Shown piece after piece: positions 472-14,700 of a stretch of DNA of 14,700 nucleotides. The notes beneath the pieces are model-generated. The model did not search any database, was not told the DNA's origin, and saw only the letters and a program-made list of their open reading frames with translations. The stretch comes from Bacteroidetes bacterium UBA4408 (GTDB lineage: Bacteria > Bacteroidota > Bacteroidia > UBA4408). Positions within the stretch are counted from its first letter, which is position 1, and every line of letters begins with the position of its first letter. The position numbers and the translations under genes are program-made. The stretch lies in assembly GCA_002389785.1 (NCBI GenBank), contig DGQS01000139.1, forward strand, positions 1-14,700, given 5' to 3'.

Positions 472-3400
472 TTAATCCAATATAAGAAGTTGAATTGTAA
501 CCGAGGTACCAACGCCAACTTCACTTTCAAGACTAAGAGTGCCTTTTATAAATTCCAACAATTCACCAATGATAATGTAGCCTAAACCATTTCCATGATC
601 GCCGGTTACCGGCATAATACTATGACCAGAAACTTTAGTCACAATAGAAAGGATTCGTGCTTTTTGTTCTTTTTTCATACCACTGCCGTTGTCTTTAACA
701 GTAAAGGAATAGCCGGTAGGAGTGAAACCTCCAATTATTTCAATACTGCCATTTTCGGTGAATTTACAAGCATTAGAAATAAGATTGTGAAGCACAATTG
801 ATAAGATTGTAGCGTCCGACTTAATGATATCTTCTTCAGATATTGAAACGGTGATTTGTGATTTTTTTGATGCTGCTATTTCAATAAATTGATCACTTAT
901 TTCTTCAACAAATGCAGCAACTGCAATATTGCCCTTGTTAATTGTGATACGCTTGTTTTGATGCTTAATCCAGCTCAAAATATTTTGTGCATTATCACGA
1001 AGTTTTTGGGTAGTGTTCTTTATATCTGCCAACACAGACTGCATATTTTCATAGTCGAGTTGGGTGTTTTTACGCGCACTTTTTTGTGCAACAACGGTTA
1101 TAAAATTTAATGGTGTAATTATATCATGAGCTATTATCGAAATGAGTTTATCCTTAACACTCACCGATTGTTTGAGCTCATCATTTGCTTTTATTAACTC
1201 AGCTGTTCTTTGCTGCACACTTAATTCCAAAGCTTTGTTTCGTTTGTTAATATTGAATGCATATATACGTGCTACAATAAAGGTGAATAAAGCTGCTAAT
1301 AAAATACATCCCAGCAAAAACCAAATTGTTTCGTAGTATTTTTTTTCAACGACAAAAGGTATTGAAGTAACTATAAAATCATTCGGATTTAAACCACTGC
1401 GCTTACGTAGTTTAAAAACATAGTTACCCGAAGAAAGGTTTGAAAAGGAAAAACTATTTTGATTACTCGTTAAGCGCAACCATTGTTTCGAATAACCTTC
1501 AAGTTTATATTCAAGCATTAAATTATCGGATGTTCCCCAGAAAGGGGTTGAAAAATCTATTCGCACTAAACGACAATTACTTGGAATTACATTCAGCTTA
1601 GATTGTATTTGTAAACTGTCATCCGCATATATTCCATCAATGTATACAGCAGATGAAAAATCAGGATTATTTATTTCGGAAGGCTTAAACCATACCAAAC
1701 CTTCACCATTAGGAAGCGAAGTATAGCCATTTTTTAAGGTAATATAGGAAGGAACACAGCCACCATTAAATTCAGGACTGGCAATGCCCTCCTCTTCTCC
1801 ATAATGTAAATAACTTACAGCATAGGTAGTATCATAAAAATATTTTTCAAGATCAGCAAAGCGTGTTTTGTAAATTCCATTGCTGGTTGCTATCCAGGTA
1901 TAACCTGCCGAATCATTCACAAAAAGATAGGCTTGTTGCAAATAATGATTGGCATCTTGAGGCATTTTACGCGTGATACCATCCTTGTAAAAATAATATC
2001 CACGACCAAATGTACTAATCATCAAAAAGTCTTTGTAAACAATAAAACTGTATGGATATTTTTGATATAATTCTTTTATTGTATCTAAATCTTGTGTGAT
2101 AGGATCGTACTCAAATAGTCCGGTATAATTGCAAACTAGAAGTTTATTATTTTTCCACCTCATCAGTTGAAAAATATTGGAATTTGAATTGTTATTTTCC
2201 AGTTCTTTAACAATTCTCAACGTGTCATTTTTTACATAACCTATACTTTGTGTGCAACCTACCCAAATAGAGTCACCCTCCTCGTAAAAGCACAATACCA
2301 ATTCGTTTTTTGGATTGAAAATAGTTTTAACTTCCTTCGACCTTGGATTGTATCGTTTTAAAATTCGCTCATTTTTCATATACCACAGCCAACCCGATTT
2401 ATCACGAAATACATTTTCCGAATAATTTCTATCCAAATTCAAGGAACTTTTTCGACCGCCCTCCTTGGTAAACTCTCTACCCCAATCAGTATAAACAGTA
2501 TTGCTGTCAATATCGAGTTGGAAGTAATATGAATTGTTTGTACCTCTTTCAGGATTGGGATAGGTTAAAAATTTGAACTTTTGCTCCCTAAAAACAAAAA
2601 GTCCCCTGCTATCGGTTGCCACTAAAAGTAGTTCATCTTTGGGATGGTAAATAAGAGAGGTAACCAAGCAGTTTTGTGGTATTTCACTGGTAAGAAGCTT
2701 GGTTTTAACAAGGTTGGGCGCCGATGCATCGGTTTTTAATTCAAACAAACTGTTTTCAAACAATAAACAACTGGAAGAGGTTGAATAATCCCAAAAAGTA
2801 TTACTGAGTAATTCGGGATGGTTTTTAAAGAGTACAGAAGTGGCTAAATCTCCGATTAAGTTGCAAGGTATTACTTTCCATAAATTTATATCAATTCGAT
2901 AGATTTGATTGTTGGCAGTGAAAAAATAAATCTGATTATTAATGCCAATGAAATGTGTAGGAGAATAGGATTGCAAATCAAGACTTCGTTTGAGTTGTGT
3001 AAAATGGTAATATCCTACACCTGTTTTTGTTCGAATTACTGCGTCTTCACCAGTTATAGGAAAAACTGTTAATGGGGGATAATGCCAATTTCTATCTCGT
3101 TTTGTATTAAAGTGGGGTGTTGTTGCATTTAAGTAATACGATTTACTTGGAAGTGTTCCTTTTAGCGTAAAATAGTTTATTGAATTTACGGGCCCTTTTC
3201 TAAGGCTGATTATTTTTTGGTTTTTAATTTCAAAAACGGTTCCACTGACATCCCATGCCAGCAATTCTTGTTGAGTTGTTTTGTTTATTGAAAAGCTTGA
3301 GTAAGGAACTGAACTTGTCGTATAATTACGAAAATTAAAACCATCAAATCGTAACAAACCGTTGCTATAACTTATCCACAAAAAGCCAGCACTATCAAAT

Positions 3401-3537
3401 TGAAGCGATTGTAAATTATTTTCGGGCAAGCCATTTTTTGTAGTGTAATTAGTAATGTAGTACTTGTTTTGCGCCACTGAACAAAAAAAGCATAACTGCA
3501 AATACACTATAAAACCAAAGTGTTTTAAGCTTTTCAT
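472..3537 (-). CDS. Propeller-type sensor histidine kinase, partner of the adjacent response regulator
   Basis: A 1021-residue membrane sensor kinase. Residues 1-23 form a signal peptide ending SVAQ. Residues 24-630 are a periplasmic beta-propeller region long enough for about two seven-bladed propellers, with Reg_prop-like motifs at 48-66 (DSAGFLWISYSNG), 379-385 (DKSGWLW) and 542-548 (DSAGYTW). A Y_Y_Y-type beta-sandwich covers about 631-730, one membrane span 737-758, and a coiled segment then leads to the HisKA domain. The predicted phospho-accepting histidine is His804 in IIAHDIITPLN. The HATPase domain shows the N box with Asn922 (HNLISNACKF), G1 at 949-953 (DNGSG) and G2 at 982-986 (GNGLG). 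The protein ends right after the HATPase, so it lacks the receiver and AraC-type domains of true hybrid systems. Its ATG overlaps the regulator's stop codon by ATGA, indicating coupled translation. The ligand is unknown. Confidence 0.95.
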   Translation of the reverse strand: MKSLKHFGFIVYLQLCFFCSVAQNKYYITNYTTKNGLPENNLQSLQFDSAGFLWISYSNGLLRFDGFNFRNYTTSSVPYSSFSINKTTQQELLAWDVSGTVFEIKNQKIISLRKGPVNSINYFTLKGTLPSKSYYLNATTPHFNTKRDRNWHYPPLTVFPITGEDAVIRTKTGVGYYHFTQLKRSLDLQSYSPTHFIGINNQIYFFTANNQIYRIDINLWKVIPCNLIGDLATSVLFKNHPELLSNTFWDYSTSSSCLLFENSLFELKTDASAPNLVKTKLLTSEIPQNCLVTSLIYHPKDELLLVATDSRGLFVFREQKFKFLTYPNPERGTNNSYYFQLDIDSNTVYTDWGREFTKEGGRKSSLNLDRNYSENVFRDKSGWLWYMKNERILKRYNPRSKEVKTIFNPKNELVLCFYEEGDSIWVGCTQSIGYVKNDTLRIVKELENNNSNSNIFQLMRWKNNKLLVCNYTGLFEYDPITQDLDTIKELYQKYPYSFIVYKDFLMISTFGRGYYFYKDGITRKMPQDANHYLQQAYLFVNDSAGYTWIATSNGIYKTRFADLEKYFYDTTYAVSYLHYGEEEGIASPEFNGGCVPSYITLKNGYTSLPNGEGLVWFKPSEINNPDFSSAVYIDGIYADDSLQIQSKLNVIPSNCRLVRIDFSTPFWGTSDNLMLEYKLEGYSKQWLRLTSNQNSFSFSNLSSGNYVFKLRKRSGLNPNDFIVTSIPFVVEKKYYETIWFLLGCILLAALFTFIVARIYAFNINKRNKALELSVQQRTAELIKANDELKQSVSVKDKLISIIAHDIITPLNFITVVAQKSARKNTQLDYENMQSVLADIKNTTQKLRDNAQNILSWIKHQNKRITINKGNIAVAAFVEEISDQFIEIAASKKSQITVSISEEDIIKSDATILSIVLHNLISNACKFTENGSIEIIGGFTPTGYSFTVKDNGSGMKKEQKARILSIVTKVSGHSIMPVTGDHGNGLGYIIIGELLEFIKGTLSLESEVGVGTSVTIQLLILD

Positions 3538-4172
3538 CCGGCAATTTCAAAATTGTACAAATTCGCCATATTTTGTAAATCTATGATGTTTGATACACCT
3601 AATTTATCAAATAAACGAGCTTTAAATGTGGTAACCGTATTGGACTTTACACTTAATTTTATTCCAATTTCTTTAATACTAAGTCCTTTTAATAAATAAT
3701 TCAACACTTCCAATTCACGGTCGCTGAGCTGTTTAAAGGGGTTGGTATCCAGTGATTTCGTTTTCAAATCAGCATTTCTAAGCATCTGTAACTCTGGACT
3801 CACGTAATTTTTACCGGCTAGAAAAAGCTCCAAAGCAATTAACACTTCCGATTCGGGACTTTGTTTTTTTAAGAAACCATTTGCTCCAAGACGTAATACT
3901 GGTTTTGCAAAAATTTCTTCTGGGCTCATGGTGTAAATTAAAATAAAAACATCCGGAAATTCGCTTCTAAGGTTGTTAAGTATTTCCATTACATTCCCAT
4001 CCTGTAATTGCATATCAAGTATGAGATGGCTAATTTCATTCACTTTAACCAAATCTTGAATTCCTTTGCAGGTTTCAGTTTCAAAGAGTTCAATCTTGCC
4101 GAAATGCGTGTCTAATAAAAACTTTAATCCTCTTCGTATAATTACATGGTCATCCGCAATTAATAGTTTCAT
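3534..4172 (-). CDS. NarL/FixJ-family response regulator (REC plus LuxR-type HTH)
   Basis: A 212-residue cytoplasmic regulator. The receiver domain (1-120) has the acidic pair Asp7-Asp8 (LLIADDH), the predicted phosphorylation site Asp53 (LILDMQLQDG), Thr81 and Lys103 (GFLKK). The DNA-binding domain at about 146-205 carries the LuxR/NarL pattern: LSDRELEVLNYLLKGLS, then IKEIGIKLSVKSNTV and the helix ending KLGVS. Phosphotransfer from the kinase encoded immediately downstream would be expected to promote dimerisation and DNA binding. This is the first gene of a two-gene operon, and its stop codon overlaps the kinase start (3534-3537). Length and motifs are normal for the family. No clear -7/-33 promoter could be picked out upstream on this strand. 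Targets are not stated by the sequence; the divergent giant gene is the nearest candidate. Confidence 0.96.
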   Translation of the reverse strand: MKLLIADDHVIIRRGLKFLLDTHFGKIELFETETCKGIQDLVKVNEISHLILDMQLQDGNVMEILNNLRSEFPDVFILIYTMSPEEIFAKPVLRLGANGFLKKQSPESEVLIALELFLAGKNYVSPELQMLRNADLKTKSLDTNPFKQLSDRELEVLNYLLKGLSIKEIGIKLSVKSNTVTTFKARLFDKLGVSNIIDLQNMANLYNFEIAG

Positions 4173-4679: not shown

Positions 4680-7600
4680 ATGAGTAAGAGCTACACTACA
4701 TTTCAACGAATCAAACAGCTAAAAAACCTTTTAGCTATTTTGTTTTTAATTTTCTCACTATGTGTCGGTAATTTACAGGCTCAGGTAACGGTGAGTCCTG
4801 GCGTGGGAGGTCCTTACGCAACCGTAAATGCAGCTTTTGCAGCAATTAATGCAGGTACTCATACAGGAGCGGTTACCATTGCAATCTCAGCAAACACAAC
4901 TGAGCCAGCCGCACCAACCGTTTTGGCTGCTAGTGGTGTGGGTGCTGCTAACTATAGTAGTATAACGATTTACCCAACCGCAGCAAGTGTTGTAGTAGCA
5001 GGTGCAAGCACTGCTACTAATGGTGTTTTAGTATTTAACGGAGCCGATAATATTACCATTAATGGTAATTTGAATAATGGGTCTGGTACAACAAGAAATC
5101 TCACTATCCAAAATACACCTGCATTAGTAACAACAGCGCATAGTGTGTTGTGGTTTCAAGGAACTGCAACCGCTCCTGCTTTAGGATGTACCAATATAGT
5201 TGTAAAAAACACTAACATTCAAGGTAACGGAAACTTGGCAGGAACAAGTGGAACTACAACTTATTCAACAGGTATCGTTTTTGTTGGTACTACAGCAGCG
5301 TCCTCAACCACTCTTGGAGCAAATCACGATAACATTACAATTAGTAATAATTTAATAAAGAGAGTTACTAATGGAATTCACATGGGAAATGCAATAGCTA
5401 CTCCTATCACCAATTTAATAATTCAAGATAATGAAATTGGTTCTGCAGTAGCTGCTGAGGCTGTTTACTATCGCGGTATGTGGTTAAGCAATATTTCTGG
5501 TGCTATTATTCGTAGAAACCATGTTTTTAATATAATCCCAACACTTTCTACCCAAACTTTAGATAGAATGGGTATCGAAATAACAGGTACAGGTAGTGTT
5601 AATTGTTTGATTGAAAGAAACCAAATTCATGGATTGGCAACTTATAGTACAAGCGGTTATGGTGGTTATGGAATAAATATCAATGGTGGAAATAATCATA
5701 CAATAGTAAACAACTTGGTTTATGATATCCAAGGATATGGATGGACTACACAAGCTAATTGCCCGGAAGGTATAAGATTATCAGCAGGCACTGGACATAA
5801 AGTTTATTACAACTCTGTTCACCTATATGGACAATTAACTGGAACAACAACTCGATATTCGGCTGCATTTGTTGTAGCTGCCACAACAGTTACAGGTATT
5901 GATGTAAGAAATAATATTTTCAGCAATCAAATGACTGCACCCAACTCAACAACAACTGAAAATATGGTGATGTGGTTCGCTGCTTCATATAATTTTGCTA
6001 CAGCTGGAAATACCATTAATAATAATGGACTTTTCCTTACCCCATCTTCTGCAAATCATATACTTGGGAAGGTCGGTACAACAGCAGGAACTGGAAATTC
6101 TACCTCGATAGGTGCATGGCAATTAGCTTCAACTGGTGATGCTAATTCGGTTCCTTTAATCGCTTCGGTTGCTCCATTCACTTCAAATACAAATCTTACA
6201 ATTCCAACCTCCACTAATACATCACTTGAATCGGGAGGTATTGCAATAGCATCCTTAGGATTACCTAATACAGATTATATCGGAACAAATCGCCCTGCCG
6301 GCACAGGAACTGCACCGGATATAGGAGCATATGAATTTGAAGGTGTTGCTGCGGGATGTAATTCTGCTCCTTCAAATGGAGGTTCTGCTAGTATTAGTGC
6401 TGGAACTGCTTGTTTGGGAGGTACAGTTATACTTAGTGCCACCGGGTATACAAGTGATTTAGGCATAACCTATCAATGGACTCAAGCTTCTGCAGTTGGA
6501 GGTCCCTATACGCCAGTGCCAGGAAGAACAAACCCAAGCGGATTTACTACCGACCCATTAACCGTTTCAACTTTTTACAGATTAGAGGTTACCTGCAGTA
6601 ATACTAGTCAAACAACAGTATCAAATGTTGTAAATGTTTCTGTATATGACCCACAATTAACAGGTACCAATAGCCCTCAAAATTTGTGTGGAACGGGAAG
6701 CCTTAATTTTACGGCGAGTGTTTCAAGTGCTGTATCAGCCAACTGGTATACAGCAGCTAGTGGAGGAACACCTATTCATACAGGTCTTTCATTTACCACT
6801 CCCGTAATTTCTACAACAACCAATTATTGGGTAGCTGCTACCTCTGGTGGTTCTACTAGTAATGTTAGTAAACTTGCACCAGAAGTTGCGTCAACAGGGA
6901 CAGTACTAACAACTTATGGACAAGATTTTACTGTTACAACAGCGTTTGTATTAAATAGTATTCAGGTATTTTCAACAACAGGTACTTCAATAACTGTAGC
7001 GCTTTATAGTGCTGGAGGTACAACACAACTTATGTCAACAGGCCCTGTTGCAGTTACTGCAGGAACTTCACCAACGATTAATCTTGGATGGTCAATTGCA
7101 CCTGGAACTTACCGATTGTGTGCTCCAGGAATGACTGGCAATTTTATTCGTGACAATACAGGTGTAACTTATCCGTTCTCACTCACCGGTATTGGTACCA
7201 TGAATGGATTCGTTTCTTCAATTACCGGGTCTGTAACTACCTCAAGTAGTTATTATTTTTTATACAATTGGTCTGTAACTACAGGTTGTGAAAGCGCCCG
7301 TACAATGGTCACTGCAAATGTAACATCAGCCCCAACAATTAATCCAAGTTCACCATTGACCTTGGTTTGTAGTGGCGGTAGTACAACTTTAAATGTTAGT
7401 AGTACCAATGATCCGAATTATACTTATACATGGAACCCTGGTAATTTAGCCGGTGCTTCCGTAAATGTAAGTCCTACTACGACTACTACCTATACTGTTA
7501 CGGCATTGGATAATTCAGCCGGTCTATATGCCGGTTGTACTACCCTTAATACCCTTCAAATTATTGCACAACCAGCATCCGCTACAATTTCTGGAACACC

Positions 7601-10600
7601 GGAAGGATTTTGTGTGACTGGTGGAAGTGCTACCTTGTCATTAAATCCTTCAACTGGATATCCTGCGAATTCATTACAATGGCAGGATTCACCAAACAAT
7701 TCTGTATTTACAGATATTGTAGGTGCCACTTCTGCAAGTTACATTACTCCAACCATTTCTGCAACGACCTATTATAAAGCTTTAATTAAAAATGGGAACA
7801 ATGTAACATGTATTGAGCCAACTTATGAATTGGCAGTAAATAACCCAATTATCACTGGTACCACTCCTGCAAGTCGTTGTGGAACTGGTACTGTTCAATT
7901 GGGTGCATCTGTTTCAGGAGCTGTTTCTGCAAATTGGTATGCTGCTGCTTCAGGCGGTGCAGCTATTGGAAGTGGAACTACTTTTACTACCCCAATAATA
8001 AATGCTACAACTACCTATTATGCGGCTGCAACTGCCGGTGGCTCAACTGCTTCAACTGCACTAGCTACTTTACCATCCGGTCCTTCATCTGGTGCTGGAA
8101 CTACCAACTTTGGGTTGGTTTTTGACGTTACGGCTCCATTTACGCTTTATTCAGTTGTTGTTTATCCAGTTGCTGCTTCGGCTAATACAGCAGGAACAGT
8201 AACTATTGATGTAGTAAATGGTTCAGGTACAGTATTGCATACAGCAACAGTAAATGTAATCGGTAACCCTATAGCTTCGGTTACACCACAAACAGTAACA
8301 TTAAACTTTAACATAGTACCGGGTACAAATTACAAATTGAGACCCGGCTCTCGCAGCGCTTCTATTACAGGACTTGCATTTGGGCCTACAGCCTCTGCTC
8401 CTCCGGGAGCTAATTACGGGTATCCATTTGTTGTGCCGGGAGTTTTGTCAATAACATCAAGTACTCTTACTGCAACTCCAACTAATACCCCACGTTTAGA
8501 TTTATATTATTACTTTTTTAACTGGCAAATTAGCACCGGATGTGAAAGTGCACGTCAACCAGTAATTGCCACAGTAACACCTGCACCGGCAATAACTGTT
8601 AATGCTTCAGCTACTGCAATTTGCCCTGGAGGGACTGCTGACATTAGCGTTCAAAGTGTGAATGATCCAGATTATACTTATACTTGGACTTCCAGCCCTG
8701 CCGGATTCACTGCCAATGGTCCTGGACCACATACTGTTTCACCTTCCATTACTACTAAATACTATGTGAATGCAGTTGACAACAGTGCTGGACCTAATCA
8801 GAATTGTGCCATGATTGATAGTATTACAATTACAAATGGGGGGCCATTGGTAGCCGGTACCATTTCGGCAGGACAAAGTGATTTCTGTGTCTCAGGTTCT
8901 ACAACTTTAACATTAACTGGGGCTTCAGGTGGTACTAAACAATGGCAAGTTTCAACTGTAAGTGCTTCAGGTCCTTGGACAAATATTGGTTCAGGTGCAA
9001 ACACTTTGGCTACTGGAACAATTAGTCAAACTAGTTATTATCAAGTTTCATTAAGTTGCAATGCTTCAACTGTTTTCTCAAATGTTATAACCTTAACAGT
9101 TAATAATCCGCAAATTACTGGAACTACGCCTGGTACAAGATGTGGACCCGGTTCAGTTACAATCGGAGCAACAGCCTCGCAGGGAGTTGTAAATTGGTTT
9201 GCAAATGCTTCAGGAGGTAGTTCACTAGCAACTGGAAATACCTATTCGCCTAATGTAAATTCCACAACCACCTATTATGCATCTGCAATTACAGGAGCTG
9301 GCGGTACGTCTACAGTTGGTGCACCAAATAATGGACAAACGTCAGGTTATACTTTAGAAGCAGGTTTATTTTTTAATGCTTTATCCGATTTTAATTTGCA
9401 AGGAGTTTATGTATACCCTGTTGGAACCGGAGCAGGAACTGTTGATATTGCAGTTATGAATGCATCTTCAGTTGTTATTTTAACTACAACAGTTAATTTA
9501 GTTGGAACAGCAGCACCAGGAATTAAAACTTATGTTCCTTTAAATTGGAACATAACTACTGGAACTGGATACAGTTTGGTAATGCTTCAAAGAACAGGAT
9601 TGGTAGCAAATTTAGTTAGAGATCCTGCGGCAAACATTACTGGAGGAGGGTTTCCATTTACGCTACCTGGAGTAATATCAATTACTTCCGGCAAGTGTTG
9701 TCCTTCAGCTACATCTACTTCTTATTATTATTTCTACGATTGGAAAATTGCTACCGGTTGTGAGGGTGTTCGTGTTCCAGTCTTAGCTACAGTAACCGCA
9801 CCACCGGCCGTAACAGTTTCATCAACTTATCCGGCTGTTTGTAATGGTGGTAGCACAACATTAAATGTAACTAGCCCCAATGATCCGAATTATTCCTATT
9901 CTTGGACGTCTGTTCCTGCCGGATTTACAGCCTCAACTGCCGGACCACATGTAGTAACTCCAACAGTAACAACAAAGTATTTACTTACTGCAACTGATAA
10001 TTCTGCAGGTATTAATGCAGGTTGTGTTGCAAATGATAGTATTACAGTAGTTTATAGCAGTGGTTCACCAACTGCAGGTACTATAACTGCTTCACCTACA
10101 GAAATTTGTGTTTCAGGTACATCAACACTTACTGTAACTGGTGCTAGTGGCGGTGCAATACAATGGAAGGAATCTACTGTTAGTGCTTCAGGACCATGGA
10201 CAAATGTAGGTACTGGTGCCACTACTTATTCAACAGGAACGCTTACCCAAACTAGATATTATCAAACTGAAACAAGTTGCAGTGGCACTACAGTGTCATC
10301 TGCTACTCAAACCATTACTGTAAACAACCCAAGCGTAATAAGCACTACACCTGGATCAAGAATTGCAACCGGTTCGGTGCAACTTGGTGCTACTGTATCT
10401 GCTGGAGCAACAGCAAATTGGTATACCGCAGTAAGTGGTGGAACTTCTATTGGTAGCGGATCTCCTTTTAATACACCGGTTATTGCTTCTACAACCAACT
10501 ATTATGTAGCTGCTTCCTCGGGAGGTGGTACTGCGTATACCGGTAAACCAAGTATGGAACTCTCTGCTACTACAGGTGGTGGACTAACTAGTTATACAAT

Positions 10601-13600
10601 TTTTGATGCTCTTTCAAATTTCGTTTTGGAAACTGTAGATGTATATCCTTATGGTGCTACCGACGGTGCTCCAGGAACAGTAACAGTAGAACTAAGAAAC
10701 TCTGCCGGAACATCACTGATGACACAAGTTGTCAATGTAATCGCTCATAGTTCAACTGCACTTAGTGTTCCTCAAACAATAACATTGAATTTTCCCATTA
10801 CTCCGGGAACAGGTTATCGTTTGGGAGTAGCGTCTTGGACAGGCGGTGTTACCAATATGTATCGCAATGACAATGGTGTTTATCCTTATACAGTGCCGGG
10901 AGTAATTAGCATAACAGGTTCTTCAATCGCATCTCCTCCTTATGTTTACTTTTATTATAATTGGCGAGTTACTACGGGATGTGAAAGTGCTAGAACCATG
11001 GTTACAGCAACTGTAAATCCTGCACCTTTAGATGCAAGTATAGCTCTGGTTTCGCCAGTTAATCCGGCAAATGCTGGAAATAATACCGTTAGTGTTAATA
11101 TCACAAACAACAGCTCTTCCGACCCAATTACCAGTTTAAGCTTATCGTATACCGATTTTACAACAACTAATACTGAAAGTTTCACCGGATTAAATATTCC
11201 AGCCGGTTCAACTCAATTGGTAACATTTGTAACACCATATTTTGCTGCTAACGGTTTTAGTTTTCAAGCATCTATTCAAACTGTTAACGGTGTAGTTGAT
11301 TATAGTCAAGCAAATGATGTTACACCAACTCAAAATTTCTGTGTTAGTTTGAATGGAACTTACACTATTAATAGTGCTGCACCTACTTCAGGTACTAATT
11401 TTAACAACTTAAATGATGTAGCTTTTGCACTTTCTTGTGGGGTATCTGGTCCGGTAGTCTTTAATTTACTGTCATCTTACAATGCTCAAGTCACAATTCC
11501 ACCGATAGTTGGTGCATCAGCTGTTAATACAATTACATTTAATGGAAATGGAAATGTATTGACATTTGCAGCTACAGTAAGTTCAGCTCCGCATACTCTT
11601 GCTTTAAATGGAGCCGATTACCTGCGCTTTAATGACTTAGTTATTGAAGGAACAGGCGCAACTTACGCTATGGTGTGTCACTTATGGAATGGGGCAGACA
11701 ATAATACATTTACAAATTGTACATTTAATGCTCCGGCAAACGGGACTTCAACTACACAGGTACCTTTCTCAATTAGCGGATCTGCTACTAGTGCAACTGC
11801 TACTGGTGTTAGTGGTAATAACAACATCGTTACCGGTTGTACAATGTTTAGTGGGTATTATAACACTACACTTATTGGTGCAAGTGGTACTCCAAATACG
11901 GGTAATCAAATTATAAATTGCAATATTCTCGATCAGAATTTTTATGGAATTTATAATTCTTATCAAAATGGAGCAATTATCAGAGGAAATAATTTATCTC
12001 GACCAACGCGTACTACCTTGAATACCTATTATGGGATTTATTTAACAACCGGATGTACCAACATGTTAGTTGAAAAAAACAGGATTCATGATACCTATGC
12101 CGCGGGTGTTGCCACAACAGGTACAACATATAATATTTATTGTACCATAGATGCAACAGCTGGTAACGAGAACAAATTCTTCAATAACCTTATTTCAAAT
12201 ATAAATTTTGCAGGAACCATTTATGGAATGTATATGTCGGGTTCTGATTATTGGAAAGCATACCATAATACAATTTCACTCGATCAAACAACTGCAAGTG
12301 GAACAACTACTACTTATGGAATTTATGCAACCGGGACTGTAAACTACGACGTTCGAAACAACATTGTTTATATTACCAGAGGCGGAACCGGAACCAAATA
12401 TTGTGTTTACTATAGTACACCGGCAGCTGCTACAAGTAATACAAATGATTTATTTATGAATTCCAGTGGAGGCACAAATAGTATTGGGTATAATGGAACA
12501 GCCTATGCCACACTTTCGGCATGGCAGGCGGCAAACCCAACTTTCGACCAATTATCGGTTTCTGTTGATCCATCTTTCTCAAATCCGCTTGGTGGAAATT
12601 ATTCGCCAAATGAACCTATTTTAAATGGAATAGGATCCAATTTAGGTATTATTGATGATATTATAGGTACAGCAAGAACAATAAACCCTGACCCTGGAGC
12701 TTTTGAATTCGGTATAGCTACCGCACCTCCTTCTTGTGCCAATGTTTCTGTTTCAAATGCCACTTGCATTACTGCAACAACCCTTAGTTGGCCTTTCGCT
12801 GCTGGTTATCCATCAGGTTATAATATCTACCTTGGTACCGATGGAGGCGGCGTTACTGCACCAATAGGATTACTTTCCGGTTTTAATATTGGTAATTTAA
12901 CAAGCACAGTACTTCCAACATTATTGCCAAATACATTGTATTATTATATGGTTGAACCATTTAATTCAATGGGAGTAGCTACCGGATGCACAATTGGTTC
13001 ATTTATGTCAGGTGCAAATGTCATTCAAACACCGACACAATCGGCCAGTTCGTATACCGAAACTATGGACAATAACGTAACACCACCTGCATTACCTTGT
13101 GGAATGACCTCTTCGAACGAAAACTTCCCTGCAGATGCATTTACCTGGTATACTGCAAGTGGAGCTGCAAATGCTCACGCAGGTACTCGTTATTTACGTA
13201 TCGATAAAAATACCAACAACACTACTGCTAAAGACGATTGGTTCTACAGTGCTCCAATGAATTTAACCGGTGGTAAATTGTACCGTATTTATTTCTGGCA
13301 CCGCGTAGGAACTGCAGGAAGCGAGAACTTTGAAGTTTTCTTAAGCAACAGCAACGATGCAGCAACCATGTTAACTACTTCAGCAGTATTTAACGGAACA
13401 AGTAATTTGTTGACTTACAAACTGGATTCCTCAGCCGATATTTTACCTCCATTTAGCGGTATTTATTATTACGGTATTCATGCCAATGGTGCTGCCAATG
13501 GCCGAAGTTTGTATATGGACGATATTCAAGTGAAACAAATACCTGTTGCAGCTATGGATCCTGCATCTTGTATCACTGTTCCAAGCTTGTACGATCAGTT

Positions 13601-14700
13601 ATTAGTACAACCGGTTTATCAGGCTCAAGATTACAAATTCAAAATTGAGAACCTTGCAAACAGCTTTAGTTATGAGTATACTCGTAACTTACCAATTCCT
13701 GATTTCCGCTTGAAGTGGGCGCCTGGAGTAACGTATGATTTATCATACGATGTATCGGTATCATACAAAAAGAACAATGTATGGAGCCCTTATGGACCAC
13801 CTTGCGTTGTAACCATGGGCCCTTTCCCAACTACTCAATTACGTGGTGCATCTTGTGGAGCAACCCTCACCGATTTGTATACTCCATTGTACATTGACTC
13901 AGTAGGTGGAGCGAACGATTACGAATACAGAATTGTACAAAATACCTTGGCATACGACCATACTTGGATGCGTGGTGCTCCGGTATTAGACTACCGTTTA
14001 TATTGGGCATATCAAACATCGCCACTATTGGTGGAACGTGTACAATTTGGATTTACTTACGATGTACAAGTGCGTGCTTTAGTTGGACGTACCGGACCGG
14101 CACAAGGAAACTTACCGGGAACATTGGGAACCTTTGGACCGGTTTGTACAGTAACTTTGAGTGGTCAACCACAAACCCAACTTGTAGCAGCACCTGGACC
14201 ACAGCAATCCTGCGGTAAAACGTTAACCAACATTACCGATCAAATATTCTGTATTCCTGTGGTAGGAGCAAGCAATTATCGCTATACTGCTGTAAATGCT
14301 GCCTTAGGTTACAATGCAACTGCTGATCGTAATTCAACCTTAAATGATTTCCGATTAAACTGGTTACCAACCGTTGGCGGAGTAGGATTACGTTATGGAA
14401 CCACTTACGACATCACCGTTCAAAACAATGTAGGTGGAGTATGGAGCACAGCAGGAGCAATGTGTCAGGTAACTACTCCTGCACAGCCGCTTACTCAATT
14501 GCAACCGGCGTATTGCTTGTATACTTTACCAACCTTTAGTACACCAATTTACTGCAACGCAGTACCTGCTGCTACTAACTACCGTTACCGCATCACAGAT
14601 GTTGCAACCAGCGGAGCTACATACACTAAGATCATTGACCGTAATGCACCATCAACCGATTTCCGATTTACTTGGACATTGGTATGCTGCGGCGGATTGA
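4680..14700 (+). CDS. Giant modular T9SS-type surface protein (3' end beyond the window)
   Basis: A single frame of 3340 codons runs from ATG 4680 to the window edge with no stop; I read every line in frame. The start is fixed by the signal peptide (about residues 1-35: Lys/Arg-rich, then LLAILFLIFSLCVG, cleavage near LQAQ-V). Domain order: beta-helix 1 (36-554), Ig-like (560-655), four supermodules (656-2114), CARDB-like (2115-2214), beta-helix 2 (2221-2678), fibronectin III-like (2683-2780), jelly roll (2781-2955), C-terminal repeats (2961 onward). The supermodules are rich in Thr, Ser, Gly and Ala, as expected of stalk-like adhesins. Such proteins cross the outer membrane by the type IX system; a C-terminal sorting domain is expected but lies outside the window. 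Likely roles are attachment, gliding or matrix building, but no binding partner can be read from the sequence. The end of the last visible codon run is VCCGGL. Confidence 0.93.
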   Translation, partial: MSKSYTTFQRIKQLKNLLAILFLIFSLCVGNLQAQVTVSPGVGGPYATVNAAFAAINAGTHTGAVTIAISANTTEPAAPTVLAASGVGAANYSSITIYPTAASVVVAGASTATNGVLVFNGADNITINGNLNNGSGTTRNLTIQNTPALVTTAHSVLWFQGTATAPALGCTNIVVKNTNIQGNGNLAGTSGTTTYSTGIVFVGTTAASSTTLGANHDNITISNNLIKRVTNGIHMGNAIATPITNLIIQDNEIGSAVAAEAVYYRGMWLSNISGAIIRRNHVFNIIPTLSTQTLDRMGIEITGTGSVNCLIERNQIHGLATYSTSGYGGYGININGGNNHTIVNNLVYDIQGYGWTTQANCPEGIRLSAGTGHKVYYNSVHLYGQLTGTTTRYSAAFVVAATTVTGIDVRNNIFSNQMTAPNSTTTENMVMWFAASYNFATAGNTINNNGLFLTPSSANHILGKVGTTAGTGNSTSIGAWQLASTGDANSVPLIASVAPFTSNTNLTIPTSTNTSLESGGIAIASLGLPNTDYIGTNRPAGTGTAPDIGAYEFEGVAAGCNSAPSNGGSASISAGTACLGGTVILSATGYTSDLGITYQWTQASAVGGPYTPVPGRTNPSGFTTDPLTVSTFYRLEVTCSNTSQTTVSNVVNVSVYDPQLTGTNSPQNLCGTGSLNFTASVSSAVSANWYTAASGGTPIHTGLSFTTPVISTTTNYWVAATSGGSTSNVSKLAPEVASTGTVLTTYGQDFTVTTAFVLNSIQVFSTTGTSITVALYSAGGTTQLMSTGPVAVTAGTSPTINLGWSIAPGTYRLCAPGMTGNFIRDNTGVTYPFSLTGIGTMNGFVSSITGSVTTSSSYYFLYNWSVTTGCESARTMVTANVTSAPTINPSSPLTLVCSGGSTTLNVSSTNDPNYTYTWNPGNLAGASVNVSPTTTTTYTVTALDNSAGLYAGCTTLNTLQIIAQPASATISGTPEGFCVTGGSATLSLNPSTGYPANSLQWQDSPNNSVFTDIVGATSASYITPTISATTYYKALIKNGNNVTCIEPTYELAVNNPIITGTTPASRCGTGTVQLGASVSGAVSANWYAAASGGAAIGSGTTFTTPIINATTTYYAAATAGGSTASTALATLPSGPSSGAGTTNFGLVFDVTAPFTLYSVVVYPVAASANTAGTVTIDVVNGSGTVLHTATVNVIGNPIASVTPQTVTLNFNIVPGTNYKLRPGSRSASITGLAFGPTASAPPGANYGYPFVVPGVLSITSSTLTATPTNTPRLDLYYYFFNWQISTGCESARQPVIATVTPAPAITVNASATAICPGGTADISVQSVNDPDYTYTWTSSPAGFTANGPGPHTVSPSITTKYYVNAVDNSAGPNQNCAMIDSITITNGGPLVAGTISAGQSDFCVSGSTTLTLTGASGGTKQWQVSTVSASGPWTNIGSGANTLATGTISQTSYYQVSLSCNASTVFSNVITLTVNNPQITGTTPGTRCGPGSVTIGATASQGVVNWFANASGGSSLATGNTYSPNVNSTTTYYASAITGAGGTSTVGAPNNGQTSGYTLEAGLFFNALSDFNLQGVYVYPVGTGAGTVDIAVMNASSVVILTTTVNLVGTAAPGIKTYVPLNWNITTGTGYSLVMLQRTGLVANLVRDPAANITGGGFPFTLPGVISITSGKCCPSATSTSYYYFYDWKIATGCEGVRVPVLATVTAPPAVTVSSTYPAVCNGGSTTLNVTSPNDPNYSYSWTSVPAGFTASTAGPHVVTPTVTTKYLLTATDNSAGINAGCVANDSITVVYSSGSPTAGTITASPTEICVSGTSTLTVTGASGGAIQWKESTVSASGPWTNVGTGATTYSTGTLTQTRYYQTETSCSGTTVSSATQTITVNNPSVISTTPGSRIATGSVQLGATVSAGATANWYTAVSGGTSIGSGSPFNTPVIASTTNYYVAASSGGGTAYTGKPSMELSATTGGGLTSYTIFDALSNFVLETVDVYPYGATDGAPGTVTVELRNSAGTSLMTQVVNVIAHSSTALSVPQTITLNFPITPGTGYRLGVASWTGGVTNMYRNDNGVYPYTVPGVISITGSSIASPPYVYFYYNWRVTTGCESARTMVTATVNPAPLDASIALVSPVNPANAGNNTVSVNITNNSSSDPITSLSLSYTDFTTTNTESFTGLNIPAGSTQLVTFVTPYFAANGFSFQASIQTVNGVVDYSQANDVTPTQNFCVSLNGTYTINSAAPTSGTNFNNLNDVAFALSCGVSGPVVFNLLSSYNAQVTIPPIVGASAVNTITFNGNGNVLTFAATVSSAPHTLALNGADYLRFNDLVIEGTGATYAMVCHLWNGADNNTFTNCTFNAPANGTSTTQVPFSISGSATSATATGVSGNNNIVTGCTMFSGYYNTTLIGASGTPNTGNQIINCNILDQNFYGIYNSYQNGAIIRGNNLSRPTRTTLNTYYGIYLTTGCTNMLVEKNRIHDTYAAGVATTGTTYNIYCTIDATAGNENKFFNNLISNINFAGTIYGMYMSGSDYWKAYHNTISLDQTTASGTTTTYGIYATGTVNYDVRNNIVYITRGGTGTKYCVYYSTPAAATSNTNDLFMNSSGGTNSIGYNGTAYATLSAWQAANPTFDQLSVSVDPSFSNPLGGNYSPNEPILNGIGSNLGIIDDIIGTARTINPDPGAFEFGIATAPPSCANVSVSNATCITATTLSWPFAAGYPSGYNIYLGTDGGGVTAPIGLLSGFNIGNLTSTVLPTLLPNTLYYYMVEPFNSMGVATGCTIGSFMSGANVIQTPTQSASSYTETMDNNVTPPALPCGMTSSNENFPADAFTWYTASGAANAHAGTRYLRIDKNTNNTTAKDDWFYSAPMNLTGGKLYRIYFWHRVGTAGSENFEVFLSNSNDAATMLTTSAVFNGTSNLLTYKLDSSADILPPFSGIYYYGIHANGAANGRSLYMDDIQVKQIPVAAMDPASCITVPSLYDQLLVQPVYQAQDYKFKIENLANSFSYEYTRNLPIPDFRLKWAPGVTYDLSYDVSVSYKKNNVWSPYGPPCVVTMGPFPTTQLRGASCGATLTDLYTPLYIDSVGGANDYEYRIVQNTLAYDHTWMRGAPVLDYRLYWAYQTSPLLVERVQFGFTYDVQVRALVGRTGPAQGNLPGTLGTFGPVCTVTLSGQPQTQLVAAPGPQQSCGKTLTNITDQIFCIPVVGASNYRYTAVNAALGYNATADRNSTLNDFRLNWLPTVGGVGLRYGTTYDITVQNNVGGVWSTAGAMCQVTTPAQPLTQLQPAYCLYTLPTFSTPIYCNAVPAATNYRYRITDVATSGATYTKIIDRNAPSTDFRFTWTLVCCGGL
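4785..6341 (+). other. Protein domain: right-handed beta-helix 1
   Basis: Residues 36-554 of the giant protein. It opens with GGPYATVNAAFAAINAG, the usual cap of Bacteroidota beta-helix surface proteins, and closes with DIGAYEFEG, the usual end. Between them, Asn-containing rung motifs recur about every 31 residues: ERNQIHG (codons from 5613), VNNLVYD (5706), YYNSVHLYG (5805), DVRNNIFS (5901). Beta-helices of this kind often bind or cut polysaccharide, but I see no lyase or hydrolase signature, so a structural or sugar-binding role is the safer reading. Confidence 0.8.
6645..11018 (+). repeat. Four tandem copies of a ~400-residue Ig-type supermodule
   Basis: Units begin at 6645, 7839, 9102 and 10323, giving lengths of 398, 421 and 407 residues plus a shortened fourth unit of about 232 residues. 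Each full unit has the order: first part of an Ig_7-like domain (x-C-G-x-G-S/T-V, then NWY/F and TTxYY), an inserted beta-sandwich of roughly 130-170 residues containing 'PF-x-x-x-G-V-x-S-I-T' near its end, the closing Ig strand with TGCESAR, then two further Ig-like domains. The first of those carries NDPNYTYTW-type and DNSAG motifs; the second carries FCV-[ST]-G and QW. The fourth unit stops after TGCESAR and lacks the two extra Ig domains. Copies are clearly related in protein but diverged in DNA, so the duplications are old. Confidence 0.85.
11022..11322 (+). other. Protein domain: CARDB-like beta-sandwich
   Basis: Residues about 2115-2214 of the giant protein. The pattern ASIALVSPVNPANAGNNTVS, then NITNNSSSDPITS and IPAGSTQLVTF, fits the CARDB / adhesion-type fold seen in many secreted bacterial proteins (opening strand, 'N-x-x-N-x-S/G', then 'I-x-A-G-x-x-x'). 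It sits exactly between the last supermodule and beta-helix 2 and probably acts as a spacer. The family call is moderate; the sequence alone does not exclude another Ig-like fold. Confidence 0.5.
11340..12713 (+). other. Protein domain: right-handed beta-helix 2
   Basis: Residues 2221-2678. It begins with CVSLNGTYTINSAAPTSGTN and a 'NLNDVAFAL' cap, then LNGADYLRFNDLVIEG, which parallels FNGADNITINGN in beta-helix 1. The rung motifs VEKNRIHD (from 12069), FFNNLIS (12177), YHNTISLD (12261) and DVRNNIVY (12348) come in the same order as in beta-helix 1. The domain ends with DPGAFEFG, parallel to DIGAYEFEG. It is followed by a fibronectin-like domain. No catalytic signature is visible. Confidence 0.78.
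12726..13019 (+). other. Protein domain: fibronectin type III-like
   Basis: Residues 2683-2780. The sequence runs CANVSVSNATCITATTLSW, GYNIYLGTDGG and LLPNTLYYYMVEPFNSMG, which has the fibronectin III arrangement: Trp in the B strand, 'G-Y-x-I-Y' in the C strand, and 'L-x-P-N-T-x-Y-Y-x-x-x-P-x-N' near the F strand. Four cysteines could pair. This is a common linker domain before C-terminal jelly rolls in Bacteroidota secreted proteins. Confidence 0.7.
13020..13544 (+). other. Protein domain: choice-of-anchor J-type jelly roll
   Basis: Residues 2781-2955. Visible marks are SYTETMDNNVTPPALPCGM at the start (the 'F-x-E-x-M/F-D' opening), FTWYTASGAANAHAGTRYL, DDWFYSAPMNLTGGKLYRI with FWHRVG, and the closing LYMDDIQVK. 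This is the pattern of the MAM-like or choice-of-anchor J jelly roll ('D-D-W-L/F-x-S-P-x-I-x-L' to 'x-x-D-D-I-x-V'). These domains usually sit in the C-terminal third of T9SS cargo and may bind carbohydrate or calcium. Confidence 0.72.
13560..14700 (+). repeat. C-terminal repeats marked by D-[FY]-R-[LF]-x-W (four seen, last cut off)
   Basis: Repeat starts are near 13560, 13830, 14169 and 14490. The key motif appears as DFRLKW (codons from 13701), DYRLYW (13989), DFRLNW (14346) and DFRFTW (14658), spaced 96, 119 and 104 codons apart. Each of the first three ends with 'Y-D-[VI]-x-V' and then '[WF]-x-x-x-G-x-x-C-x-V-T'. Repeats two to four open with 'T-Q-L' followed by a cysteine. The fourth is cut by the window edge. 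Similar repeats in Bacteroidota cargo precede the type IX sorting tail. Their molecular role is not known to me. Confidence 0.8.

What the first reader, a model, noticed from the sequence alone, without database searches (positions are those of the whole stretch)
6645..11018. Nested domain architecture: a beta-sandwich appears inserted into each Ig_7-like domain
In ordinary Ig_7-type domains the strand ending 'TTxYYVxAT' runs straight into 'GCxSxRxxVTATV'. Here all four copies have roughly 130-170 extra residues between those two halves, with their own conserved marks ('PF/PY...PGVISIT...YYYxYNW'). The conserved cysteine in the first half (residues 670, 1067, 1488) would pair with the one in TGCESAR (870, 1288, 1694) across the insertion. 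This would give a knobbed fibre: an Ig stalk with a lobe projecting from every second or third domain. I know of no named domain for the inserted part.
Basis: partly seen in the sequence, partly recalled or inferred. Interest (0 to 1): 0.7.

Follow-up and report, generated by a model that had tools for sequence, protein, structure and literature searches.

The report
Swappable lobes plugged into Ig stalk
A giant bacterial surface protein carries a separate folded lobe inside every third immunoglobulin-like domain of its stalk, and relatives hold different lobes in the same slot, which looks like a modular way for these bacteria to display and exchange binding parts.

The parts
4680..14699 (+). 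Giant surface-protein ORF (3340 aa, cut by the contig end): hydrophobic signal-like N-terminus, first repeat region (beta-helix inferred), Ig stalk with four lobes, second beta-helix, C-terminal repeats
   Evidence: ORF; Ig_7 E 1.5e-53, 9 stretches; Beta_helix E 0.0011, below cut-off, in 11343-12749 only
6645..6842 (+). Unit 1, host Ig_7 first part (aa 656-721, with Cys 670)
6843..7286 (+). Unit 1, inserted lobe (aa 722-869, type A)
   Evidence: no Pfam match over cut-off
7287..7331 (+). Unit 1, host last strand (aa 870-884, with Cys 870, CESARTMVTANV)
7332..7835 (+). Two ordinary Ig-like spacer domains (aa 885-1052)
   Evidence: first: Ig_2 E 0.0028, below cut-off; second: no Pfam match; weak hit of the first-half profile, E 0.092; two domains inferred from length and motifs
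7836..8033 (+). Unit 2, host Ig_7 first part (aa 1053-1118, with Cys 1067)
   Evidence: modelled
8034..8540 (+). Unit 2, inserted lobe (aa 1119-1287, type A)
8541..8585 (+). Unit 2, host last strand (aa 1288-1302, with Cys 1288)
8586..9098 (+). Two ordinary Ig-like spacer domains (aa 1303-1473)
   Evidence: first: Ig_7 E 1.2e-7, over cut-off; second: no match
9099..9290 (+). Unit 3, host Ig_7 first part (aa 1474-1537, with Cys 1488)
9291..9758 (+). Unit 3, inserted lobe (aa 1538-1693, type A; has a Cys-Cys pair at 1673-1674)
9759..9803 (+). Unit 3, host last strand (aa 1694-1708, CEGVRVPVLATV)
9804..10316 (+). Two ordinary Ig-like spacer domains (aa 1709-1879)
   Evidence: first: Ig_7 E 1.1e-6, over cut-off; second: no match; weak hit E 0.42
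10317..10517 (+). Unit 4, host Ig_7 first part (aa 1880-1946; Ile replaces the first Cys)
10518..10979 (+). Unit 4, inserted lobe (aa 1947-2100, type A), about 92% identical to the lobe in relative P0004 although the host parts are 54% and 53%
10980..11024 (+). Unit 4, host last strand (aa 2101-2115, CESARTMVTATV)

Best explanation
The stalk of this giant surface protein is a repeating triplet of Ig domains. The Ig_7 member of each triplet is a socket: its chain leaves after the next-to-last strand, folds a separate beta-sandwich lobe of 148-169 residues, returns along an extended strand, and completes the same Ig with its last strand. The two strands that leave and return form a short ribbon on which the lobe sits, so both lobe ends lie together and the far side is free (inferred from strand lengths in the two models). 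The lobe does not disturb the stalk period, so lobes of different families can be exchanged in the same socket, and relatives show such exchange. Inferred steps: the protein is exported and anchored by the type IX secretion system, the stalk extends from the cell, and the four lobes bind targets, most plausibly glycans, while the Ig domains serve as spacer and mount.
Confidence: 0.8

Rival explanations
1. Two consecutive separate domains: a complete Ig followed by an independent beta-sandwich whose own last strand is TGCESARxxVTATV.
For: Pfam's best stretch for Ig_7 stops at profile position 69-72 of 84 in all four units, so a profile search alone would suggest a near-complete Ig followed by something else.
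Against: The overlay needs both ends of the model to fill one 84-residue GhpA Ig; ordinary Ig_7 domains carry the same strand straight after the F strand (874 cases); other guests (type B, GEVED, lamin-tail-like) end at the same strand.
Confidence: 0.03
2. The lobes are structural decorations (spacers, shields or stiffeners of a stalk or bundle), not binding domains.
For: Type A is found almost only nested (of 25 fetched loci outside the window, 22 by profile, 2 more by eye, 1 not), with a period tied to the stalk; no lobe of the window matches a named binding family over its cut-off.
Against: Guests of different families occupy the same socket and are exchanged between hosts, which a pure spacer would not need; type B also stands alone behind signal-like N-termini and overlays carbohydrate-related domains; in RTX adhesins the domains projected from split Ig domains bind ligands (PMC12077191, passages read).
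Confidence: 0.25
3. Lobe differences between near-identical hosts come from fast diversifying change in place, not from exchange of cassettes.
For: 22 of 25 between-protein pairs with hosts at 80% or more have lobes at 79% or more, and a lobe under pressure from ligands or grazers could diverge quickly.
Against: Divergent lobes have close matches in dissimilar hosts: P0050 lobe 77% to P0015 (host 34%); window unit 1 lobe 88% to P0023 (host 52%) while its best host match has a 28% lobe; Chryseobacterium L047 lobe 78% to Chitinophagaceae L033 (host 38%). Guests of different family in 80% identical hosts are hard to explain by point change.
Confidence: 0.12

Closest known systems
Split Ig-like domains of RTX adhesins (FrhA, AhLap, MpIBP; PMC10865825 and PMC12077191, passages read)
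   Same: An Ig-like domain discontinuous in sequence lets a whole second domain bud out, with both of its ends on the stalk side; Ig extender domains lie between; the projected domain is the binding part there.
   Different: RTX adhesins with RTX beta-rolls and a type I secretion signal. In the AhLap structure 9CSE the chain goes into the ligand-binding domain from the first strand of the split domain; here it leaves before the last strand of an Ig_7 domain. Here the slot recurs every third domain and holds several guest families.
GhpA, grappling-hook protein of Aureispira (9flp, 9fls, 9flw and others; PDB titles only; the paper is not held)
   Same: Uninterrupted Ig domains overlay the host Ig of the window (1.6-1.9 A), sequence profile E 1.1e-7, and Ig domains recur in threes, near 249 residues in 8 of 11 intervals.
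   Different: The GhpA Ig domains aligned here are uninterrupted; whether GhpA carries lobes elsewhere was not tested.
PHR domains (BTBD2, MYCBP2)
   Different: 14% identity; no PHR family among the 17 matched by 52 lobes at E 0.05; eukaryotic, intracellular context (recalled).
Carbohydrate esterases and their CBM (7tog, 7toj, 7tok) and the Cwp84 lectin-like domain (4ci7)
   Different: Not the window's own lobe type; 6-10% identity; no sugar-binding site identified; a phage tail-tip protein (9d93) overlays equally well.
Ultralong cattle antibody CDR H3 knobs (recalled, no call)
   Same: A folded knob on a two-stranded stem between the last two strands of an Ig.
   Different: Small disulfide-bonded knob in an antibody; no common origin is suggested.

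Membership tests
Pfam Ig_7 (PF19081) | Profile score over the curated cut-off | tested here: met
   4 of 4 window units, 47.0-53.7 bits against 27.3; 73 of 73 aligned units (4 window, 69 others) match at E up to 1
Pfam Ig_7 (PF19081) | Last strand present and completing the Ig fold | tested here: met
   Present after 148-169 inserted residues and overlaid with the first part on one GhpA Ig (unit 2 only)
Split Ig-like domain unit of RTX adhesins | Ig fold completed on both sides of a second folded domain | tested here: met
Split Ig-like domain unit of RTX adhesins | Same exit point (from the first strand, as in 9CSE) | tested here: not met
   Exit is before the last strand (9CSE as described in PMC12077191); so it works like one but is not filed as one
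Split Ig-like domain unit of RTX adhesins | RTX beta-roll and type I secretion | tested here: inconclusive
   Window C-terminus is cut off; relatives P0004 and P0006 list the T9SS sorting domain PF18962 instead
Split Ig-like domain unit of RTX adhesins | Projected domain binds a ligand | not testable with these tools
   needs binding assays
PHR domain | Sequence profile match | tested here: not met
   Not among the 17 Pfam families matched by 52 lobes at E up to 0.05
PHR domain | Fold | tested here: met
DUF4082 (PF13313) | Sequence profile match | tested here: inconclusive
   9 of 52 lobes at E up to 0.05, best 4.1e-5; not among the matches of the four window lobes
T9SS cargo | C-terminal sorting domain | tested here: inconclusive
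   Cut off in the window; PF18962 listed for P0004, P0006 and others; T9SS markers present in the genome
GhpA-like triplet Ig filament | Three-Ig repeat of about 249 residues | tested here: met
   250, 252, 251 net of lobes; GhpA: 8 of 11 hand-picked intervals 244-251

The most novel reading that the evidence does not exclude
Ig_7 stalks of Bacteroidota are a general plug-in display system: a fixed three-Ig lattice with one socket per triplet, into which lobes of unrelated families are plugged and exchanged as cassettes between sockets, proteins and lineages, giving each strain its own ordered set of binding heads on one fibre.
Probability: 0.5. Interest if true: 0.8.

Novelty: new variant of a known kind. 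Interest (0 to 1): 0.64.

Why it matters
Profile searches read such proteins as broken Ig repeats with nameless gaps. Knowing that the gap is a socket lets one cut out the lobes correctly, name them and test what they bind. A three-domain period like that of a solved filament gives a structural template for a large, poorly annotated class of surface protein. Exchange of lobes between conserved hosts would explain how such bacteria change surface specificity while keeping the stalk, and it predicts that targets follow the lobe rather than the stalk.

Tried and rejected
Pfam and PDB-sequence searches with lobes alone and NCBIfam with whole units gave no family over its cut-off for the window's lobes. 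The strong-looking WD-40 matches rest on a motif of about 22 residues repeated in propeller proteins; no single stretch passed on its own, so they were discarded. Unit 4 alone against the PDB gave only chance matches.

A first cut of nested units by regular expression kept 109 of 263 aligned stretches and dropped 154, many of them real nested units with a variant motif or another guest; only its cysteine table is used as a cross-check (102 both, 7 second only, 0 first only). One search counts the first cysteine if any C lies within four columns of its alignment column; one search counts any C in the first 20 residues and in a 13-residue tail.

In one search, 11 of 322 long gaps (clusters of 3, 3, 2, 2, 1) are complete Ig_7 domains followed by another domain and were set aside after inspection; some type B and C lengths are too short because the last-strand pattern hit inside the lobe (for example L019, P0034, P0029). 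Alignment A2 uses 66 of the 79 loci: eight were not entered, two had stops in the unit (L044, L057) and three were left out as redundant or short. A viral-contig scan confirmed no relative.

Literature: none of the 20 papers listed of 125 is about PF19081. The listings (8 of 8; 15 of 24; 12 of 16; 15 of 48), seen as titles and starts of abstracts, showed no report of nested Ig_7 domains. Most subscription journals, including the GhpA paper, are not held.

Proportions of guest types are biased: the proteins were collected with a type A unit. Absence from the second-look structure lists is not used as evidence.

Full report
WHAT WAS CLAIMED AND WHAT IS THERE. The window is a contig of an incomplete genome (71% complete, 259 contigs). 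The 79 named loci kept of 528 relatives of its unit all bear Bacteroidota names. An ORF starts at 4680 and runs off the contig (3340 aa). Its residues 560-2116 are a stalk of Ig-like domains. In four places an Ig_7 first half is followed by 148, 169, 156 and 154 residues of other sequence before the conserved C-x-[SG]-x-R strand. The fourth copy has Ile where the first cysteine should be.

EMPTY AND FILLED SOCKETS. A profile of the first half found 1511 copies in 494 open frames from 119 database proteins, the window and fetched loci. A last-strand motif followed in 1227: within 0-9 residues in 874, at 130-199 residues in 304, and elsewhere in 49; 284 had none in reach. Ordinary Ig_7 domains show the same two cysteines: both in 528 of 573 scored, first only in 34, second only in 11. 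In nested units both occur in 62 of 73 and the second alone in 11. The pair is thus an Ig_7 feature kept across the lobe, which fits a disulfide, but the losses are not coupled and no distance could be measured.

A FIXED PERIOD. Successive units in the window start 398, 421 and 407 residues apart. Less the lobe, that is 250, 252 and 251. Over 142 intervals in the window and the database proteins the net spacing has a median of 257, and 124 of 142 lie in 230-275; it is alike after type A (257, n=104) and type B lobes (258, n=30). GhpA's Ig domains, located by a seven-sequence Ig_7 profile with mostly weak single-domain scores, recur in threes: of 11 intervals between starts that I picked by hand, 8 are 244-251 and the others 259, 264 and 179. 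The best-aligned GhpA domains start at 2063, 2313, 2561, 3070, 3570 and 3831, mostly near multiples of 250 apart. So the stalk looks like a triplet lattice from which the lobe hangs without changing it. In the window the first spacer of two of the three pairs is Ig_7 over cut-off; the other spacers are weak or undetected by Pfam, so the second spacer as an Ig domain rests on length and motifs.

TYPE A IS NEARLY ALWAYS A GUEST, TYPE B IS NOT. A lobe-only profile found type A in 25 of 395 genomes of the phylum. Outside the window, 25 fetched loci hold a match at E below 1e-6: 22 have the Ig first half upstream by profile, 2 by eye, and 1 does not; three weaker matches look like chance. Of 18 type B matches, 4 are nested and 14 are not, several sitting right behind a signal-like N-terminus.

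LOBES MOVE. Among 249 type A units, identity of hosts and identity of lobes between proteins correlate at r 0.135; the two halves of the host correlate at 0.43 and the two halves of the lobe at 0.67. Of 195 units with a foreign lobe match above 60%, the same unit is also the best host match in 51. P0082 and P0050 agree closely before the lobe, have 97% identical hosts, only 35% identical lobes, and agree again right after it. The P0050 lobe is 77% identical to one in P0015 whose host is 34% identical. In L052, two successive units have 80% identical hosts, one with lobe A and one with lobe B. A Chryseobacterium lobe (L047) is 78% identical to a Chitinophagaceae lobe (L033) in a 38% identical host. 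Each of the four window units has different best partners for host and lobe, though with consensus-like hosts a best host match says little. Against exchange as a rule: of 25 between-protein pairs with hosts at 80% or more, 3 have lobes below 60% and 22 at 79% or more; several of the 25 appear to be one locus fetched twice.

THE WINDOW'S OWN RELATIVES. Compared with P0006 the first repeat region is 94% and the C-terminal region 91% identical, yet the stalk between is rebuilt: P0006 and P0004 have two nested units, not four. The unit 4 lobe is 92% identical to P0004 while its host parts are 54% and 53%. Low identities elsewhere in that alignment partly reflect parts without counterpart.

WHAT IT DOES. 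T9SS export is inferred: the genome has 150 matches to the sorting domain (150 of 188 candidates scored) and SprA, and relatives carry the sorting domain, but the window protein's end is missing. Ligand binding is inferred from the 'split Ig-like domain' units of RTX adhesins, where such domains project ligand-binding domains away from the stalk (passages of PMC12077191 and PMC10865825), and from weak likeness of the lobes to galactose-binding and carbohydrate-related folds; phage tail proteins overlay as well, so this likeness is not specific.

NOVELTY. The principle, a domain budding from a split Ig, is in print for RTX adhesins. I found no report of it for Ig_7 or T9SS proteins, of this socket, of the shared three-Ig period, or of exchange of guests in the listings; the library lacks most subscription journals. 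I file it as a new variant of a known kind.

Noticed in passing
window 472-4172, minus strand: Divergent from the giant gene: a histidine kinase with a large N-terminal part and a LuxR-type response regulator, overlapping by four bases; a two-component pair that might regulate the surface protein (role not tested).
   Followed up: no
window 4785-6353 and 12735-14699 compared with P0006: Ends of the protein are 91-94% identical to relative P0006 while the stalk between has been rebuilt (2 nested units instead of 4), i.e. a hypervariable middle between conserved ends.
   Followed up: partly
window 13557-14699: C-terminal repeats with a D-[YF]-R-[LF]-x-W motif and no Pfam match at E 0.1.
   Followed up: no
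L113, L114, L117, L122, L124: Type B lobe stands alone directly behind a signal-like N-terminus in other proteins of the phylum; no Pfam family matched the one type B sequence scanned.
   Followed up: partly
window 9696-9701 (aa 1673-1674), L047 and L033 lobes: A vicinal Cys-Cys in the unit 3 lobe recurs in the lobes of L047 and L033, perhaps a loop cross-link or metal site.
   Followed up: no
own genome G000: At least 150 matches to the T9SS sorting domain in an incomplete 2.65 Mb genome, a very large exported repertoire.
   Followed up: no
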